In this document: positions 2,967-11,148 of the stretch, piece by piece
Numbering within the stretch: position 1 is the stretch's first letter
Layout of the letters: the number at the start of each line of letters is the position of its first letter
DNA from: Verrucomicrobiota bacterium
GTDB lineage: Bacteria; Verrucomicrobiota; Verrucomicrobiia; Chthoniobacterales; UBA10450
NCBI GenBank assembly: GCA_003219415.1
Contig: QHOS01000025.1
Span: 1-35,939 of the forward strand
DNA: 35,939 nt
Reading direction: 5' to 3'
Translations under genes and position numbers: made by a program
Notes under the pieces: generated by a model
Seen by the model: the letters and a program-made list of their open reading frames with translations, nothing else
What the model was told of the DNA's origin: nothing
Database searches by the model: none

Positions 2967-3019
2967 GGATTTTAACAACCTTTTTGCCACGCGGGGCGAA
3001 ATTTTCCGAAGGAACAGGG
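2967..3019 (+). promoter_or_regulatory. Conserved leader element, copy 1
   Basis: This is the first of four similar elements. The shared order is GGATTTT, AAC, a T-run, then GCCACGC, GGGCGAAA, TTCCGAAGGAA and CAGG. TTCC-GAA-GGAA can form a four-pair hairpin that would hold the AAGGA ribosome-binding motif. GCC and GGC around ACGCG can form a second small stem. The element ends next to a possible ATG at 3023 and 34 nt before the better-supported start at 3053. No known riboswitch class is recognised. Confidence 0.55.
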
Positions 3020-3052
3020 TAAATGGCTAAACCGATCCAAAGAGGAGTTGAA

Positions 3053-3214
3053 ATGCAAAAGCTAAACCCTGAGATACCTTTTACGTCTGCACGGAAGGAC
3101 GAAGCAAACGAGGGAGCACGTATCTCTATCAGAGATCCGGACACGATCCTCACCACGATTGTGCTTCTACTTGCCTGCCTGGCCCTCGCGGTCCTGGCGC
3201 ATGCAGTCATTTAG
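3053..3214 (+). CDS. Small single-pass membrane protein
   Basis: The product is a 53-residue protein: a polar N-terminal half and a C-terminal hydrophobic stretch (LTTIVLLLACLALAVLAHAV) fitting one membrane span with a very short tail. The start is placed where AGAGGAG sits five bases before ATG. An in-frame ATG at 3023, directly behind the conserved leader element, would add ten residues and cannot be excluded. The topology resembles small C-tail-anchored stress or regulatory peptides, but no family is recognised. It is one of four ORFs in this stretch preceded by the same leader element. Confidence 0.5.
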   Translation: MQKLNPEIPFTSARKDEANEGARISIRDPDTILTTIVLLLACLALAVLAHAVI

Positions 3215-3498
3215 CAACGCGTCAGGACAACCCCAGGGGTATCTGCTTGGTCCCAACATACGTCGTTCTAACGACGCCGGCAGCAACAACGTGGCAGCGG
3301 GAGCTTAAAGTCCTTTTCAGCAACACGGGGTACCTTCCGCATCGCTGTTGGCTGAGATGTGTCCGATAGCGCCGACACTGGTCACAGCGACTTAGCCATC
3401 GGTCACGGAGGTTGCTTGGCCCGCTTTAACCTCCCACTCTCTCTGCCGCACCTATCTTGGCTATCCGTCCTATCGCTGTAATGCGCGGTCGGCCGGAA
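3215..3498. other. Intergenic stretch without a supported gene
   Basis: No convincing ORF is seen on either strand. A near-perfect palindrome, CGTCGTT and AACGACG around CT, lies at 3261-3276. It lacks a T-run and is not a convincing intrinsic terminator. Confidence 0.5.
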
Positions 3499-3550
3499 AG
3501 ATTTTTAAACTTTTTTGCTACGCCGGGCAAAAGCTTCCGAAGGAAATAAG
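3499..3550 (+). promoter_or_regulatory. Conserved leader element, copy 2
   Basis: It matches copy 1 in order and spacing: ATTTTTAAAC, a T-run, GCTACGC, GGGCAAAA, TTCCGAAGGAA, then ATAAG in place of CAGG. GCT can still pair with GGC through a G-U pair, so the first stem is retained despite the C-to-T change. The next ORF starts at 3631 with its own ribosome-binding site. A three-codon ATG-AAA-GTT-TAA mini-ORF begins at 3601 between the two. Confidence 0.5.
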
Positions 3551-3630
3551 TAAACCGCCAGAACTGGATTCTCCTAAAGAAATCAGAGAAGGCCAACACA
3601 ATGAAAGTTTAATAGGAAAGGAATTTTTAA

Positions 3631-3825
3631 ATGAAAATCTTTATCGTTTATGATTTAGATTCAAAAATGCCCTTTGCTGTTGGCGAACAAGTGAGCGCGG
3701 AAACGGCGCGATGTTGTGCAAGCGCGGCAACCGGAATCTTGCACGCAAATCTTTTTGCAGAAGAAATTGATTTAGGAAAACAATTACCTATATCACCGGA
3801 GCCAGGCACCGTAGCCAGTGCTTAG
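3631..3825 (+). CDS. Small hypothetical protein, 64 aa
   Basis: A 64-residue product with no signal peptide or membrane span begins MKIFIVYDLDSKMPFAVGE. AGGAAAGGAA seven to eight bases before ATG is a strong ribosome-binding site and fixes the start. The middle has a small hydrophobic/alanine-rich helix (SAETARCCASAATGILHANLF) and the end is acidic. No family is recognised. It follows copy 2 of the conserved leader element by about 80 nt, and the tiny MKV-stop ORF at 3601 could couple to its translation. Confidence 0.5.
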   Translation: MKIFIVYDLDSKMPFAVGEQVSAETARCCASAATGILHANLFAEEIDLGKQLPISPEPGTVASA

Positions 3826-3914
3826 ACGCAGCTTTATTCTCCCCAGTTTTTCGCTCAAGCGTTTGGCGCGTTCCGCCCCTTGCGCGACCCGTGTTATGCG
3901 TACTCGGCCCCAAG

Positions 3915-3966
3915 GGATTTTCAAACTTTTTTGCCACGCTGTGCAAAAAGTTCCGAAGGAACAGGT
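3915..3966 (+). promoter_or_regulatory. Conserved leader element, copy 3
   Basis: GGATTTTCAAAC, a T-run, GCCACGC, GTGCAAAA, TTCCGAAGGAACAGG and TAAAACC occur in the same order as in copies 1 and 2. The TTCC-GAA-GGAA hairpin is kept exactly. The GCC/GGC stem is weakened here to GC/GC or CAC/GTG. The next ORF starts 27 nt downstream. Confidence 0.55.
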
Positions 3967-3992
3967 AAAACCAGCAAATCGCCAAAAGCCGA

Positions 3993-4217
3993 ATGAAAAC
4001 GAAAATCACACAGAGCATCAACTCCGCCGCGATTGCCATAGCGCTGTTTTGCGCCGTTGCAATCCTGTCGCCTTCACCCACCAGCATAAATACCACGATC
4101 AATGACCGCGCAGCCGATGCATTGCGCCATATCATTATTAGGCAGGCTGGTAGCACGCCCGGCTCAGCTGCTATGACAAGGCGTTGCAACTACATTGCAA
4201 CCCATACAAAGTTGTAG
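3993..4217 (+). CDS. Small putative secreted peptide
   Basis: The 74-residue ORF begins MKTKITQSINSAAIAIALFC and has a typical n-region and hydrophobic core of a signal peptide, with possible cleavage after the AILSPSP region. The remaining ~45 residues are hydrophilic and not recognised. The Shine-Dalgarno sequence is weak. The N-terminus (MKT plus hydrophobic core) resembles that of the large Asp-box protein downstream, which is preceded by the same leader element. A strong hairpin terminator follows 43 bases after the stop. A second frame overlaps (3818-4105) but has no signal features and is taken as a shadow. Confidence 0.45.
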   Translation: MKTKITQSINSAAIAIALFCAVAILSPSPTSINTTINDRAADALRHIIIRQAGSTPGSAAMTRRCNYIATHTKL

Positions 4218-4260
4218 TTTCTTCTGGCTTTGGCCAAATAATCCAGCTAAAGCTGTAAGC

Positions 4261-4292
4261 AAGCCGTCACGTTAGGTCGTGACGGCTTCTTT
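4261..4292 (+). terminator. Intrinsic terminator
   Basis: An 11-bp perfect stem, AAGCCGTCACG and CGTGACGGCTT, encloses a TTAGGT loop and is followed by CTTTGTCTCCTTT. It lies just after the small secreted-peptide ORF and would end its transcript. Confidence 0.8.
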
Positions 4293-4495
4293 GTCTCCTT
4301 TGGGTTTCATATAGCACTCACCACAGCATACAGGTAAGCAGGACGGCACAAATCCATTCGTTAGATAACATAGAGGTCAAGTCTCCTTTTTGTTCTTGGC
4401 TTTTCTAAAAGGGTTCCGGCTGGTATGTTATGTTCGCCGGGCCGGTTACTCGCGGCCGGTGGTAGCTATGCGATTTCGAGAAACAAGGTCTGTCC

Positions 4496-4539
4496 GCATT
4501 CTTTTTGCCACGCCGGCGAAAACTTTCCGAAGGAACAGG
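4496..4539 (+). promoter_or_regulatory. Conserved leader element, copy 4, fused to a start codon
   Basis: CTTTTTGCCACGC, CGGCGAAAAC, TTTCCGAAGGAACAGG and then C-ATG. Here AAGGA of the hairpin TTCC-GAA-GGAA stands seven bases before the start codon of the large Asp-box protein, so opening or closing the hairpin would directly set ribosome access. GCC-ACGCC-GGC forms a clean upstream stem. Confidence 0.6.
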
Positions 4540-4540
4540 C

Positions 4541-6928
4541 ATGAAAACAATATGCCTGAGTCAAACACGATGCCTGACCGCAGTCTCCTTGATGCTTGTA
4601 GGTGTGTTACTAACCTGTTACGGCGTCATAGTGAACTTGCGTCACGGCGGTATACAGGATATCGAGAACGTGGCTGACGTTGTACCTGCGGAGGAGGATG
4701 GGGATGCCGAGTATCTGGAAAAGCGTCATGAATTCCTGGACCGGTTCTTCGGGACCGGGCCAGGAGGCGTGTCGCCTAGTGCTTACATGGCCGCGCTCGC
4801 CGCGGCGCGCTCGCTGCCTCCAAGCCCGCTTTTGCAAGGCGGGAAGTTCGTGTCGCCCGAAGCGCCGGAGGTCACGTCGCCATGGACTTCTCCAATAGCG
4901 CCTCCCATGCAGAACAGTTACGGCGGAAACGCAAGCGCGAGGGTCCATGCGTTAGCTATTGATCCGGTCAACGCCAACGTCGTTTATACAGGAACCTTCG
5001 GCGGGCTCGCCAAGACAACCGACGGCGGCGTCACTTGGCGGTATTTGTCTGACTCGTGGGCTTCACAGAGTGTCAGCGCAATCGCCGTCAATCCTGGCGC
5101 GTCTAATGACGTCTACGTTGGCACGGGCAGAGAAGGCAGTGGCGCTGCCTCTTATGAGGTCGGCCTCTACCGCTCATTCGACGGAGGGTCAACCTGGAGT
5201 AGCGCCTTGGGAAAGGCCCAGTTTGAAGGTACGTACATCAGGACGATTGCTATCGACCCGAACACCTCGAGCTCGCAATTGACCACGACCGTATACGCCG
5301 CCAACGGCGGCACAAACACTTGCGGATTGTGGCGCTCAACTGATAGCGGCGTCACTTGGTTGCAGTTGTACCAGGTCGACAACGGCGTTTATGATGTAGC
5401 CATAGACGCCGCGACTCATCCTTCCACCCTTTACATCACTGAGGACAACGGGACGTTTAAGAGCACCGATTCCGGCCGATCCTGGACACTCATACACAGT
5501 GTTCTCGAGCATTCCCGCAATCGGTTAAGCGTGGCTAACTCCACGCTTTACCTTTTGGGGCCGAGCGATCCGGACCATAACCTCTACAAGTCCATGGACG
5601 GCGGAGCGACTTGGATTCAAATACCAACCCGTTGCCCCTGCGCTCCTGACGTTTGCGCAAACGACAACCCGCCTGGCCCTCCGATCTGTGCCGACAGCTG
5701 CGCCAGCCGCTGCGGTAATATCGGCTTTTCCGTGTTCGCCGTGGACCCCGTCGACCCACAGATCATTCTCGGAGGCAACCAGGCTCTTTACCGCACGGAT
5801 AACGAAGGCGCGACTTGGACCGAAATAGGAAACAAGTGGGGCAACGATCCCGATCCAGCCCGCCGCATCCATACCGACCAACGAGCGATCGTCTTCTCGC
5901 GGACAGCTCCTAATGTCGTGTACGAGGGCAACGACGGAGGCATCGTAAGATCGAGGGACGCGGGGCTGCACTGGACGAACCTTAATCAAAACTTTCCAGG
6001 TGCGTTGCTCTACGGCGTGGCCTTAAGCGCGGACGGCAATATGGTCGCGGGAACCCAGGACAACGGCGTGGTCTTCAGCGGCGCGAGTGCACCTTGGGAT
6101 ATGATCTTTGGCGGCGATTCCGCCCACAATCTCATCGATCCGGTCGATGGGACGGTTGGGTACTTCACGATGTATCGCGATTATGTCTTTAGAAGATTCA
6201 ACACGGCAACGCCGCACACCTCGGTCAATGTTCGCCCGTCTCAATTTGATGACGATGCAAGCTGCAACTTCTTTCCGACGTTTAGCATGAATCCATCTTC
6301 TCCAACTCATATCATCGCCGCTTGCCAGCAGGTGGTCCGAACCCTTGACGGCCCGACGGTTACGCCTGAGAGCTGGACGACGATCGGGCAGCCGTTTGCG
6401 GATCCTGTTACTGCAACCTACGAAGCACCGAATAATTCTAACGTCATTTACGCCGTCGCCGCTCATGGGGAGGTTTGGATGACTACGAACGCGAACGCCG
6501 GGACCGCGGCTGTCTGGAGGAATGTCACCCGAGACTTACCGGGGGGGATCTGGACCATCGCCGTTCATCCCACCGACCCGCAAACGGCATATCTCGCGTG
6601 CGATTCAGGCATGTATAAAACCACCGACATGGGAACAACCTGGATGCAACAGGGAGTCCAAAACCTGATCTATCGTGATGTAGCCATCGATCCACTGAAT
6701 CCTCAACATATCTTTGCAGCTTCTAATGCAGGAGTTTTTGCCAGCACCGATGGCGGGCTCAGCTGGGGAAACATGAGCGACGGCATACCGGCAGGATTGG
6801 TGGTTACTGCGCTCTCCTTTAATGCCAGTAGTCGGCAGCTTGCCGCTTCCACCTTTGGGCGTGGAGTTTACATGCTTCATCTGGATCCGCCTCCGCGGCC
6901 GCGTCCCACTCCGCGGCCCAGGCCATGA
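4541..6928 (+). CDS. Exported Asp-box (BNR-like) beta-propeller protein
   Basis: The 795-residue product has an N-terminal hydrophobic segment (LTAVSLMLVGVLLTCYGVIV) acting as signal or anchor. At least nine Asp-box units S/T-x-D-x-G-x-T/S-W follow, for example TTDGGVTWRYL, STDSGVTWLQL, SMDGGATWIQI and STDGGLSWGNM. This is the repeat found in sialidase/sortilin/xyloglucanase-type propellers. A cysteine-rich insert (CPCAPDVCANDN to SCASRCG, about residues 367-390) could carry disulfides, consistent with export. The tail is PRPRPTPRPRP. Catalytic residues of a glycoside hydrolase are not evident, so binding is as likely as catalysis. The start at 4541 is chosen because AAGGA of the conserved leader sits seven bases upstream; an ATG 36 bases earlier would begin inside the leader. 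Confidence 0.88.
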   Translation: MKTICLSQTRCLTAVSLMLVGVLLTCYGVIVNLRHGGIQDIENVADVVPAEEDGDAEYLEKRHEFLDRFFGTGPGGVSPSAYMAALAAARSLPPSPLLQGGKFVSPEAPEVTSPWTSPIAPPMQNSYGGNASARVHALAIDPVNANVVYTGTFGGLAKTTDGGVTWRYLSDSWASQSVSAIAVNPGASNDVYVGTGREGSGAASYEVGLYRSFDGGSTWSSALGKAQFEGTYIRTIAIDPNTSSSQLTTTVYAANGGTNTCGLWRSTDSGVTWLQLYQVDNGVYDVAIDAATHPSTLYITEDNGTFKSTDSGRSWTLIHSVLEHSRNRLSVANSTLYLLGPSDPDHNLYKSMDGGATWIQIPTRCPCAPDVCANDNPPGPPICADSCASRCGNIGFSVFAVDPVDPQIILGGNQALYRTDNEGATWTEIGNKWGNDPDPARRIHTDQRAIVFSRTAPNVVYEGNDGGIVRSRDAGLHWTNLNQNFPGALLYGVALSADGNMVAGTQDNGVVFSGASAPWDMIFGGDSAHNLIDPVDGTVGYFTMYRDYVFRRFNTATPHTSVNVRPSQFDDDASCNFFPTFSMNPSSPTHIIAACQQVVRTLDGPTVTPESWTTIGQPFADPVTATYEAPNNSNVIYAVAAHGEVWMTTNANAGTAAVWRNVTRDLPGGIWTIAVHPTDPQTAYLACDSGMYKTTDMGTTWMQQGVQNLIYRDVAIDPLNPQHIFAASNAGVFASTDGGLSWGNMSDGIPAGLVVTALSFNASSRQLAASTFGRGVYMLHLDPPPRPRPTPRPRP

Positions 6929-7775: not shown

Positions 7776-7859
7776 GCCGGCGTGGCGGAATTGGCAGACG
7801 CGCTGGACTCAAAATCCAGTGATCGCAAGATCGTGTGGGTTCGAGCCCCTCCGCCGGCA
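7776..7859 (+). tRNA. tRNA-Leu(CAA)
   Basis: The acceptor stem GCCGGCG pairs with CGCCGGC. The anticodon stem CTGGA/TCCAG holds the loop CTCAAAA, giving anticodon CAA. A long variable arm (GTGATCGCAAGATCGT) is typical of leucine tRNAs, and the T-arm GGGTTCGAGCCCC is canonical. CCA is not encoded. Confidence 0.97.
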
Positions 7860-8008
7860 AACCGTCTAACCCTATCTCTTGCGAGAGAGAATTAATCAGT
7901 TATCGCACCGGCAAACTTCGCATCCGCGCGAAGGCAGGCAACTGCGGTGGCGCGACGTATTCACCGTTTATTGCTTGTATAGAAGAGCGAGAACCCACAT
8001 GTTCTCTC

Positions 8009-8779
8009 GTGAACGGGAAGGCTGGCGACCGGGGTGAAGATGGACCTGGCGAGTTTGTAACTACCCGCTGGAGCCTTATCCTTTCCGCCGCCAACGGAAG
8101 CGAAGAACAAAAGGCGCGCGACGCGCTGGCCGAGCTTTGCCGAACTTATTGGCGACCCGTTTTCTCGTTCGTCTGCAGACACGGCTATTCCACACAGGAC
8201 GCGCAGGACCTTACGCAGGATTTTTTTATGACCATTCTGAAGAAAAATTGGTTGCACCACGCCGATCGAAGTCGCGGTCGGTTCCGCTCGCTGTTGCTCA
8301 AGTCGCTCCAAAATTTTCTTGTTAACGCCACCGAGAAATCACATGCCCACAAACGCGGCGGCGGCGCGGAATTTATTTCCTGGGACGATTGGATGGCGGA
8401 AGCGCAGTCGCAATTGTCCATCCCAATTCAAGCACTCGACTCCGTGCCGCCGGAGCGCATCTTCGACCTCGCTTGGGCGACGACGGTTGTGGAACACGCG
8501 TTTCAACGCCTGCGGGAAGAATGCGAGAGCAGAGGCAAGCTCTGGCTTTTCCAAGCACTAAGCTCCCATCTTACTGATGAACGCGATGAACTGTCATATG
8601 CCAATCTATCTGCGGAATTGGAAATGGCGGAGACGGCCGTGAAAAAACAGCTGCACAACATGCGCCAGCGTTACCGCAGTCTGCTGCGCGATGAAGTCTC
8701 ACGCACGGTCCAAAATCCTGCCGACGTAGATGACGAGATCCGGTATCTGTGTGCAGCGCTCGCAGGAAGAACCGCGTAA
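8009..8779 (+). CDS. ECF-type RNA polymerase sigma factor, kinase-associated group
   Basis: The core matches the ECF sigma factors that sit beside Ser/Thr kinases in Planctomycetes, Acidobacteria and Verrucomicrobia: FVTTRWSLILSA, then LCRTYWRPVFSFVCRHGYS, DAQDLTQDFFMTIL (region 2) and a C-terminal region-4-like segment (ELEMAETAVKKQLHNMRQRY). The reading frame is open back into tRNA-Leu, so the true start must lie downstream of the tRNA. GTG at 8009 (256 aa) is the best in-frame candidate, though its ribosome-binding site is weak; the start is uncertain. The stop codon is only five bases before the kinase start, so the two genes are almost certainly co-transcribed. No anti-sigma gene is seen; the kinase may take that role. 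Confidence 0.88.
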   Translation: MNGKAGDRGEDGPGEFVTTRWSLILSAANGSEEQKARDALAELCRTYWRPVFSFVCRHGYSTQDAQDLTQDFFMTILKKNWLHHADRSRGRFRSLLLKSLQNFLVNATEKSHAHKRGGGAEFISWDDWMAEAQSQLSIPIQALDSVPPERIFDLAWATTVVEHAFQRLREECESRGKLWLFQALSSHLTDERDELSYANLSAELEMAETAVKKQLHNMRQRYRSLLRDEVSRTVQNPADVDDEIRYLCAALAGRTA

Positions 8780-8784
8780 CTTTG

Positions 8785-11148
8785 ATGAAGACTTCCGACC
8801 ACCGGTCTGATTCACTCCCGAGCGCGAGTAAAGGCACCGCAAAATGCGAGAAGTGCGGCGCAACCATGCGACTCGACACCGGAGTTTGTGTTAGCTGCCT
8901 CTTGCTCGAGGGACTGGAAACTGATGGCGACGTATCCAAGGCGGTTTATGAAAGCGTACTCGACGAGGTGGACGCGTCGCACAAGCCTTGGTTCTTAGGC
9001 AACTACGAAATTCTCGAGCAGATCGGTTGCGGCGGCATGGGCGTGATCTATCGCGCCAGGCAACGACATTCCCGGCGCATCGTCGCGGTAAAGCGCGTCC
9101 TTAGTTATCGCGCTGATTCACACGGAGCGCTGCAGCGTTTCCGACGAGAAGCACAGGCGGTGGCCAGTCTGGATCATCCAAACATCCTTCCGATATACGA
9201 GGTGAGCGAAAGCGAGGACGGCCTGCCGTTTTTCAGCATGAAGTTCGCGGAGAAGGGAAGCTTGCAAGAGAACACGGCTTCTCTGCGCGATGAACCGCGG
9301 AAGTGCGTGCAACTCATGGCAAAAGTCGCGCATGCTGTCGAATACGCCCACAGCCGGGGAGTTCTCCACCGTGATCTAAAACCGGGAAACATTCTGCTCA
9401 ACGATCGGGGCGAGCCACTGGTCAGCGATTTCGGTTTGGCGAAGCTGCTGGACGGGAACAACGATCTTACAAGGTCGCTGACTACGTTCGGAACAGCAGG
9501 TTTTATTGCCCCTGAGCAAGCTAATGGTGCAGCCGCCGATTTTACGCCGGCGGCCGATGTTTACAGTCTCGGCGCAGTTCTGTTCAACGTGCTTGCCGGA
9601 CGTCCGCCATTCCTGGGTTCGAATCCGGTTTCCGTGATTCGTCAAGCGTCTGAAACGCAGGCGCCCAAACTACGCTCGCTGGTACCATCACTCGATCGGG
9701 ATTTGGAGACGATTTGTGCACGCTGCCTCGAACGTGATCCAAAAGCGCGCTACCGCTCCGCCGGCGATCTCGCAGCCGATCTGGAACGCTGGCTCGGCGG
9801 CCGTCCAATCGTAGCCCGCCCGGTTTCACCTCCAGCGCGGATCTGGCGCTGGTCGCGTCGTAACCCCAAACTGGTTGGAGCAGCGACTGCCGGTCTTCTT
9901 TTAGGCGCGGCTGCGGTTTGGTTATTTCGCGCCGAACTCTTCCGAGCTTCGCAGTTTAATCCCCCGGACAGGAGTATTGCTGTTCTACCATTTACCGATT
10001 CTAGCGAGACGAAAGATCAGGAATATTTGTGTGACGGCATAAGCGAGGAGATTCTCGATACCTTGGCGCAGGCTGACGATTTGCGCGTGGTCGGCCGAAG
10101 TTCGTCATTCTCATTGAAAGGAAAGAACACAAAGGAGGTTGGAGAAAAGCTTAACGTTGGAAATGTGCTTGACGGAAGGTTGCAGCGCCAAGGTAACCGC
10201 GTTCGTGTAACAGCCGAACTGATTGACGCGCGAAACGGTTTTCGCGTGTGGACGGAAACTTATGACCGCGAGTTGGACGACGCATTTGCACTTCAAGGCG
10301 AAATCGCCCGGTCTATCGTTGACGCGCTCAAGATCAAGCTCGGCGTTCGGCTTTCCGCTCACGAACAACCCGGCAACGACGCGTACGACGTTTATCTACA
10401 GCGACTTTTCACGGATGTAACTCATCCGACAGGAATAAGCAGTATTGGCATTAGCGTGCCCGTACAGAATCCATTAAATCCATTCACCGTTCCGGATTAC
10501 ACATCTGCGGGAGGTTTCGACACGCGCCACCCGGACACTCGAGTGACCGCTGCACCTCCAGGGACGGGAGTCACTACCAGTGTGCGTGATCGCGCATCGG
10601 AAGCCGGTCTGCAAACGAACAAAATTACAGCGGACGTGACCGCTGCGCCTCCACGGACAGGATTCGCTACCAATGTGCGCGATCGCGCATCGGAAGCCGG
10701 TCTGCAAACGAACAAGATTATAGCGGACGGGCCAGCGGCCATTCATGGGTTTGTCAAAGATGCAAAAGGCGAACCGATTAAAGGCGCAGGCGTTCGAATC
10801 GAATCGCGAGACGGCAAACAGGTGTTCAGCACAGTTAAGACCGATCCAAACGGCCGCTATATTTCACAGGGACTGCAACCGGGCGTTTACCGGGTAACGT
10901 TGCTTGTAAATGGCGCGGTCAAGGCGTCGATCATGAACACGCAAACCAAGGCGGATCAACCGACTCAGCTGAATTTCGATTTCAAGCCAACGTCCGAAGC
11001 AGGTAACATTGCAAAGGGCGGAAAGCGCATGGTGTGGGTGCCAGCTCGTACCGGGAGCCATATCGGCGGTACTTGGGTCGAAGTCGACGACAGGGGAAAG
11101 GCGCATTCCGGTTCCAACATTGAGACAGTCACCGCTCGTACTTGGTAA
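8785..11148 (+). CDS. Ser/Thr kinase with zinc-ribbon, TolB-like and carboxypeptidase-regulatory-like domains
   Basis: Layout of the 787-aa product: a CxxC-x10-CxxC zinc-ribbon-like motif (Cys 21, 24, 35, 38); a complete Hanks kinase (glycine loop GCGGMG 81-86, Lys103 in VAVKRV, HRDLKPGN 196-203, DFG 215-217, APE 242-244); one membrane helix about 363-383; a TolB/FlgO-like domain beginning RSIAVLPFTDSSE (about 395-523); a linker with two near-identical 31-residue repeats (587-648); and a carboxypeptidase-regulatory-like beta domain (650-723; HGFVKDAKGEPIKGAGVRI, then GRYISQGLQPGVYRVTL). The TPR tail usual after the TolB-like domain is absent. The start follows the sigma-factor stop by five bases, which identifies the pair as one operon. 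The gene likely encodes a transmembrane signal relay acting on the sigma factor; this is inference. Confidence 0.93.
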   Translation: MKTSDHRSDSLPSASKGTAKCEKCGATMRLDTGVCVSCLLLEGLETDGDVSKAVYESVLDEVDASHKPWFLGNYEILEQIGCGGMGVIYRARQRHSRRIVAVKRVLSYRADSHGALQRFRREAQAVASLDHPNILPIYEVSESEDGLPFFSMKFAEKGSLQENTASLRDEPRKCVQLMAKVAHAVEYAHSRGVLHRDLKPGNILLNDRGEPLVSDFGLAKLLDGNNDLTRSLTTFGTAGFIAPEQANGAAADFTPAADVYSLGAVLFNVLAGRPPFLGSNPVSVIRQASETQAPKLRSLVPSLDRDLETICARCLERDPKARYRSAGDLAADLERWLGGRPIVARPVSPPARIWRWSRRNPKLVGAATAGLLLGAAAVWLFRAELFRASQFNPPDRSIAVLPFTDSSETKDQEYLCDGISEEILDTLAQADDLRVVGRSSSFSLKGKNTKEVGEKLNVGNVLDGRLQRQGNRVRVTAELIDARNGFRVWTETYDRELDDAFALQGEIARSIVDALKIKLGVRLSAHEQPGNDAYDVYLQRLFTDVTHPTGISSIGISVPVQNPLNPFTVPDYTSAGGFDTRHPDTRVTAAPPGTGVTTSVRDRASEAGLQTNKITADVTAAPPRTGFATNVRDRASEAGLQTNKIIADGPAAIHGFVKDAKGEPIKGAGVRIESRDGKQVFSTVKTDPNGRYISQGLQPGVYRVTLLVNGAVKASIMNTQTKADQPTQLNFDFKPTSEAGNIAKGGKRMVWVPARTGSHIGGTWVEVDDRGKAHSGSNIETVTARTW
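10543..10728 (+). repeat. Tandem 93-bp repeat inside the kinase gene
   Basis: Two consecutive in-frame 93-bp units encode VTAAPPGTGVTTSVRD and VTAAPPRTGFATNVRD, both continuing RASEAGLQTNKI. They form the linker between the TolB-like and the regulatory-like domains. High identity suggests a recent slippage-type duplication. Confidence 0.85.

What the first reader, a model, noticed from the sequence alone, without database searches (positions are those of the whole stretch)
2967..4539. Four copies of an unrecognised ~50-nt leader element that buries the ribosome-binding motif in a hairpin
Copies at 2967, 3499, 3915 and 4496 share T-run, GCCACGC, GGGCAAAA, TTCCGAAGGAA and CAGG in the same order and orientation. 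Each precedes a small exported/membrane ORF or, for copy 4, the large Asp-box protein. TTCC-GAA-GGAA is constant, and the first stem shows a GCC/GGC to GCU/GGC change that keeps pairing. In copy 4 the AAGGA in the hairpin is seven bases before ATG. This looks like a cis-acting RNA, such as a thermometer, metabolite sensor or protein-binding leader, that controls a set of exported proteins together. No known class is recognised by eye.
Basis: partly seen in the sequence, partly recalled or inferred. Interest (0 to 1): 0.8.

Follow-up and report, generated by a model that had tools for sequence, protein, structure and literature searches.

The report
Repeated promoter-like element of exported-protein genes
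Four near-identical 40-base stretches sit in front of genes for exported or membrane proteins in an uncultured soil verrucomicrobium, and comparison with its relatives suggests they are a shared on-switch (a promoter) rather than a folded RNA, sometimes followed by a separate RNA hairpin at the start of the message that really is conserved.

Summary
In detail: four copies (2976-3023, 3506-3553, 3922-3970, 4499-4541, +), a fifth elsewhere in the genome, none in reversed-pattern controls, and no Rfam family. About 40 further copies occur in relatives (mainly about a dozen of 35 genomes of the genus; a second genus of the family; single copies further out), reading towards genes that are mostly for exported proteins. 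Pairing is not conserved (RNAalifold predicts no pairs over 43 copies), no copy folds much better than shuffles, and AAGGA lies at Shine-Dalgarno distance in only 5 of 39 loci (spacing to ATG 5-185 nt). The best reading is a promoter-type DNA element. Immediately downstream, some copies carry a separate 5'-leader hairpin (here 3551-3600) that does covary and occurs at ~148 places in 29 of 35 genomes of the genus. In front of 110 such hairpins the same slot is filled by a second element (79), by this element (11), or by a canonical TTGACA/TATAAT promoter (one clear case). The element therefore occupies the promoter slot. What reads it is unknown; an ECF-type sigma factor is a guess. No transcript data exist.

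The parts
2976..3023 (+). Copy 1 of the element; upstream box TTTGCCACGC 2983-2992, downstream box TTCCGAAGGAA 3004-3014
   Evidence: R1 match 50.8 bits, E 4.8e-13 in the genome
3506..3553 (+). Copy 2 of the element; boxes 3514-3523 and 3535-3545; followed directly by the leader hairpin
   Evidence: R1 47.5 bits, E 4.9e-12
3551..3600 (+). Separate 5'-leader hairpin, the covarying RNA of the region
   Evidence: R3 match E 2.4e-10 in the genome search, 46.5 bits; covariation of the family
3922..3970 (+). Copy 3 of the element; boxes 3930-3939 and 3951-3961
   Evidence: R1 52.0 bits, E 2.0e-13
4499..4541 (+). Copy 4 of the element; boxes 4504-4513 and 4525-4535; start codon 6 nt after AAGGA
   Evidence: R1 47.5 bits, E 5.1e-12
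3053..3214 (+). Small C-terminally hydrophobic ORF behind copy 1 (53 aa; alternative start 3023, 63 aa)
   Evidence: no Pfam
3631..3825 (+). Small ORF behind copy 2 (64 aa) with its own AAAGGAA ribosome-binding site
   Evidence: no Pfam
3993..4217 (+). Small ORF behind copy 3 (74 aa), MKTKI... with hydrophobic N-terminus; similar ORFs lie behind copies in G034, G026, G011
4541..6928 (+). Large exported Sortilin-Vps10/BNR (Asp-box) protein behind copy 4 (795 aa); similar proteins in G023 carry the element at the same distance
   Evidence: PF15902 E 3.2e-20

Best explanation
The repeated element is a promoter-type DNA sequence, read by an unidentified alternative sigma factor (possibly ECF-type) and/or activator. 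It starts transcription of a small set (1-9 per genome) of genes, mostly for exported or membrane proteins, in one branch of soil Chthoniobacterales. An upstream box (TTTGC[A/C]A[C/T]GC) and a downstream box (TTTCCGAAGGAA) are separated by a short AT-rich tract; transcription would begin at or just after GAAGGAA. At some genes the message would then begin with a separate hairpin leader that is shared with genes driven by other promoters. Shown: conservation, orientation, position at gene starts, absence of conserved pairing, slot equivalence.
For: Slot test: 110 distinct copies of the downstream leader hairpin are preceded at nearly fixed distance by a second element (79; 42 nt in 72 of 79), by this element (11; 38-40 nt), or by a sigma-70 promoter (clear case L319/L232, TTGACA-N15-TATAAT 17 nt before GGCC; a weaker relative, L222). 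No pairing: RNAalifold 0 pairs on 43 copies; stem 1 inner pairs broken in 21-22 of 42. No conserved columns upstream of about -10 and no sigma-70 signal in the 80 nt upstream (mean 2.8 vs 3.1 shuffled), whereas the L232 and L222 promoters score 14.3 and 10.1 in the same scan. Composition turns from G+C-rich upstream (56%) to A-rich downstream (36% A) at the element. Box spacing is nearly constant while distance to ATG runs from 5 to 185 nt. 34 of 39 downstream ORFs have a strongly hydrophobic segment near the N-terminus. 21 sigma-70 region 2 proteins in the genome offer candidate readers.
Against: No transcript start is known for any of these uncultured organisms. Conservation runs through ~35 nt rather than two short boxes, more than a simple promoter needs. 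The ECF pattern AAC-N16-CG is strict in only 8 of 39 copies, so that label is weak. No sigma-factor gene was found behind a good copy, so there is no sign of autoregulation. The clear sigma-70 case is one locus type, and about 17 of the 110 hairpins have an unassigned upstream slot. In five loci GAAGGAA could serve as a ribosome-binding site.
Confidence: 0.62

Rival explanations
1. A transcribed leader recognised by sequence rather than by fold: a protein or small RNA binds the single-stranded TTTGCAACGC/CCGAAGGAA boxes and controls translation or stability of the mRNA.
For: Good copies read towards a gene; conservation is contiguous over ~35 nt; GAAGGAA is purine-rich like a ribosome-binding site; in one locus (L365, G034:C96) the element lies downstream of a class-2 element and so could be transcribed.
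Against: No promoter signal upstream of the element. The same slot is taken by a sigma-70 promoter elsewhere. CsrA, the best-known reader of AGGA, is absent from the window's genome and from all 34 congeners searched.
Confidence: 0.2
2. One reading: a structured leader (thermometer, sensor or protein-binding RNA) in which TTCC-GAA-GGAA hides the ribosome-binding site.
For: Copy 4, its counterparts in G023 (L049, L082) and a copy in G084 have GGAA 5 nt before ATG; UUCC/GGAA is intact in 23 of 39 copies and 86% of cells are paired.
Against: 34 of 39 copies are not at Shine-Dalgarno distance; several lineages read TTTCGGGAAGGAA, which destroys hairpin 2; no two-sided change in that helix; folding z-scores near zero.
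Confidence: 0.07
3. An operator: a repressor or activator dimer binds the TTTTGC...GCAAAA dyad, overlapping an ordinary promoter not recognised here.
For: TTTGC/GCAAA is an imperfect inverted repeat in many copies and mismatches are tolerated as in DNA sites.
Against: Constant orientation towards the gene and the conserved asymmetric CCGAAGGAA half go beyond a symmetric operator; no -10-like box is conserved elsewhere.
Confidence: 0.09
4. A mobile repeat or cassette boundary scattered without function.
For: Patchy distribution in the genus, arrays of 2-4 small ORFs each with a copy, single copies in distant families.
Against: At gene starts in one orientation, different upstream flanks, kept at the same 5-nt distance in front of the large beta-propeller protein in G000 and G023.
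Confidence: 0.02

Closest known systems
ECF (extracytoplasmic function) sigma-factor promoters, e.g. sigma-W or sigma-E type
   Same: Two boxes at nearly fixed spacing with an AAC/CAC-containing upstream box, T-rich spacer and a non-TATAAT downstream box; regulon rich in exported proteins
   Different: Strict AAC-N16-CG in only 8 of 39; conservation is longer; no cognate sigma factor identified
Sigma-54/PrsR promoter upstream of PEP-CTERM genes in Proteobacteria (Haft et al. 2006, PMC1569441)
   Same: A shared cis element in front of exported, sorted proteins; PEP-CTERM genes do follow some copies in genus g30 and G161
   Different: No GG-N10-GC signature on either strand; most PEP-CTERM genes checked in G161, G095, G097 and G098 lack the element; the paper reports its motif only in Proteobacteria
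RNA thermometers and Shine-Dalgarno-sequestering leaders
   Same: Purine-rich AAGGA next to a complementary UUCC
   Different: Spacing to ATG not kept, pairing not kept, no compensatory changes
5'-terminal mRNA stem-loops such as that of ompA (from general knowledge)
   Same: The hairpin downstream of some copies (3551-3600 here) would lie within a few nt of the predicted 5' end and is shared by many exported-protein mRNAs
   Different: No sequence relation known; internal A-rich loops and a GGCC/GGCC outer stem; no Rfam match

Membership tests
Shine-Dalgarno-sequestering leader / RNA thermometer | Ribosome-binding site within a conserved helix at 5-9 nt from the start codon | tested here: not met
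   5 of 39 loci in range
Shine-Dalgarno-sequestering leader / RNA thermometer | Pairing kept by compensatory change in homologues | tested here: not met
   no two-sided change in helix 2; inner pairs of helix 1 broken in half the copies
Known cis-regulatory RNA (Rfam 15) | Match to a curated covariance model | tested here: not met
   (E up to 10: only chance snoRNA/IRES matches); for the hairpin loci
CsrA/RsmA target | CsrA encoded in the genome | tested here: not met
   PF02599 absent from G000 and all 34 congeners; found in 5 other genomes of the order
Sigma-54 promoter (PEP-CTERM type) | GG-N10-GC (-24/-12) | tested here: not met
   No such column pair in 39 copies, either strand
Sigma-70 housekeeping promoter | TTGACA-N17-TATAAT | tested here: not met
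   Core region scores below its shuffles
ECF sigma-factor promoter | AAC motif in the upstream box and a CG-containing downstream box about 16 nt further | tested here: inconclusive
   Loose form ([AC]A[CT] .. [CG]G) 36 of 39; strict form 8 of 39
ECF sigma-factor promoter | Transcription start a few nt downstream of the second box and recognition by a cognate sigma factor | not testable with these tools
   No transcript data; 21 sigma-70 region 2 genes in the genome are candidates

The most novel reading that the evidence does not exclude
The element, its class-2 counterpart and the downstream GGCC hairpin form one modular 5'-leader RNA system that controls a large part of the exported proteome of this genus, with exchangeable 5' domains in front of a common structured domain.
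Probability: 0.15. Interest if true: 0.75.

Novelty: new member of a known kind. Interest (0 to 1): 0.5.

Why it matters
From my own knowledge and the few papers found here, transcription signals of the abundant uncultured soil Verrucomicrobia are hardly mapped. This gives a testable promoter class with a small regulon of mostly exported proteins, a second class occupying the same position, and an undescribed covarying 5'-leader hairpin shared between them in most genomes of the genus. Together they define a regulated set of exported proteins and let candidate sigma factors be sought by co-occurrence.

Tried and rejected
Rfam at gathering threshold and at E up to 10: nothing. CsrA model: CsrA absent. 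An alternative hairpin UUUCC/GGRAAA with AAGGA in the loop, suggested by g30 and G161 copies: no more pairing than shuffles. Idea that this is the PEP-CTERM promoter of Verrucomicrobia: suggested by L072 and G161:C411, but 40 stretches around PEP-CTERM matches gave only the copy already known. Sigma-54. Integron-like cassette array: considered because of the small ORFs, not formally tested; discounted because copies sit at gene starts with differing flanks. The class-2 pattern search had a one-base spacing error of mine, so its near-empty result says nothing about class-2 frequency; it did expose one tandem class-2/class-1 arrangement. Mismatch limits blocked two searches. Literature searches for a described motif in these bacteria found none.

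Full report
Observation. A weight matrix from them finds nothing comparable elsewhere in the window (62-57 bits against 9). The genome holds a fifth copy (G000:C214:1993-2040, - strand) and none in the reversed-pattern control. Rfam 15 has no match, also at E up to 10.

Extent. A sequence-only covariance model (R1 from 23 copies, R2 from 43) finds the element strongly in about a dozen of 35 genomes of the genus, with 1-9 good copies each, in a second genus of the family (g30; G095, G097, G098) and as single copies in G084 and in another family (G161). A scan of 84,980 species genomes with an exact degenerate pattern gave 17 stretches, all from verrucomicrobial MAGs, labelled Verrucomicrobia, Spartobacteria or Chthoniobacterales/Chthoniobacteraceae (AV series, palsa_1392 and others). 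The good copies read towards a gene, and 34 of 39 nearest ORFs carry a strongly hydrophobic segment in the N-terminal region: beta-propellers (Sortilin/BNR, NHL, Kelch), small membrane peptides, and PEP-CTERM proteins in G095 and G161.

Not a structured RNA. In the genus, helix 1 loses its inner pairs in about half of the copies and helix 2 shows no two-sided change; over 43 copies RNAalifold predicts no pair at all, and pair counts exceed shuffles only marginally (80.7% vs 79.0%). Several lineages read TTTCGGGAAGGAA, which abolishes helix 2. The copies fold no better than shuffles. GAAGGAA is at Shine-Dalgarno distance in 5 of 39 loci; elsewhere the start codon is 13-185 nt away, in some loci with its own ribosome-binding site. 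The CsrA idea fails because no genome searched in the genus has CsrA.

The slot argument. Downstream of copy 2 and of many copies in relatives lies another conserved stretch, GGCCAGAAAUGA-n-UUCUC-loop-GAGAR-GUCA-AAGAA-GGCC. A structured model of it (R3) finds it in 29 of 35 genomes, about 148 places, including window 3551-3600. In 110 distinct copies it keeps 88.8% of pairs (at most 47.7% when slid) with 38 two-sided changes against 20.1 in shuffles (0 of 500 reach it), although that alignment was fitted to the structure; on the smaller MAFFT alignment the trend is the same but weaker. Plain RNAalifold on gapless subsets finds it in one subset and not in the other. Immediately in front of it stands, in 79 cases, a different element (class 2: TTTCCGCGTAAC-N20-TAC..GTGAAC) at 42 nt in 72 of 79; in 11 cases the element of this finding at 38-40 nt; and in one clear case a textbook sigma-70 promoter, TTGACA-N15-TATAAT (L319/L232), with a weaker relative in L222. 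About 17 others are unassigned. The simplest reading is that class 1 (this element) and class 2 are promoters of two specificities in front of a common 5' leader.

Supporting features. No column upstream of about -10 is conserved; no sigma-70 signal is enriched in the 80 nt upstream; base composition changes from G+C-rich to A-rich at the element, as expected at the start of a leader; box spacing is nearly constant. If transcription starts just after GAAGGAA, the beta-propeller mRNA of copy 4 would be leaderless or nearly so, and the leader hairpin would begin within a few nucleotides of the 5' end (inference). One locus (L365) has a class-2 element about 60 nt upstream of a class-1 element, like tandem promoters, though it also allows the class-1 copy to be transcribed.

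What reads it is open. The upstream box with (A/C)AC and the T-rich spacer recall ECF sigma promoters, but the strict AAC-N16-CG form holds in 8 of 39 copies and no sigma gene was found behind a good copy; the genome has 21 sigma-70 region 2 proteins. Sigma-54, described for proteobacterial PEP-CTERM genes (PMC1569441), does not fit.

Verdict. A real, apparently undescribed cis element; most probably a promoter class, not a ribosome-binding-site-burying RNA. The RNA of interest in this region is the adjacent hairpin leader.

Noticed in passing
window 3551-3600; R3 matches in 29 of 35 genomes of the genus (A7): Undescribed covarying 5'-leader hairpin in front of mostly exported-protein genes, typically 17-20 nt before the start codon; no Rfam match in the loci scanned.
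   Followed up: partly
Upstream of 79 of 110 hairpins, e.g. L249, L225, L253: Second conserved element (class 2: CGTAAC-N20-TAC) in the same slot, commoner in front of the hairpin than the element of the finding.
   Followed up: partly
L315, L317, L321, L323, L329 (upstream of hairpin): Before genes for a family beginning MKNRSSLTIF/MKTRLKIF (..NPDGCYPAFTTAEGCNA) the slot holds other sequences, some with an inverted repeat such as TTTTGCCTAGGGCTAGGCAAAA.
   Followed up: no
L365 (G034:C96): Class-2 element about 60 nt upstream of a class-1 element, without a hairpin between: tandem arrangement.
   Followed up: partly
L072 and L163 (G095:C13, G161:C411): The element precedes PEP-CTERM proteins outside the genus, though most PEP-CTERM genes there lack it.
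   Followed up: partly
L076 (G034:C50), L079 (G011:C92), window 2976-4217: Arrays of very small membrane or exported ORFs, each with its own copy; related small ORFs recur (MKTKIARHISPGAIAIALF.., MKNGDTIATVIAFLF..). Function unknown.
   Followed up: no
window 7776-7859 and 7835-11148: A tRNA gene followed by a sigma-factor-like ORF and a Ser/Thr kinase-like ORF about 1 kb past the beta-propeller gene; no sign that it reads the element.
   Followed up: no
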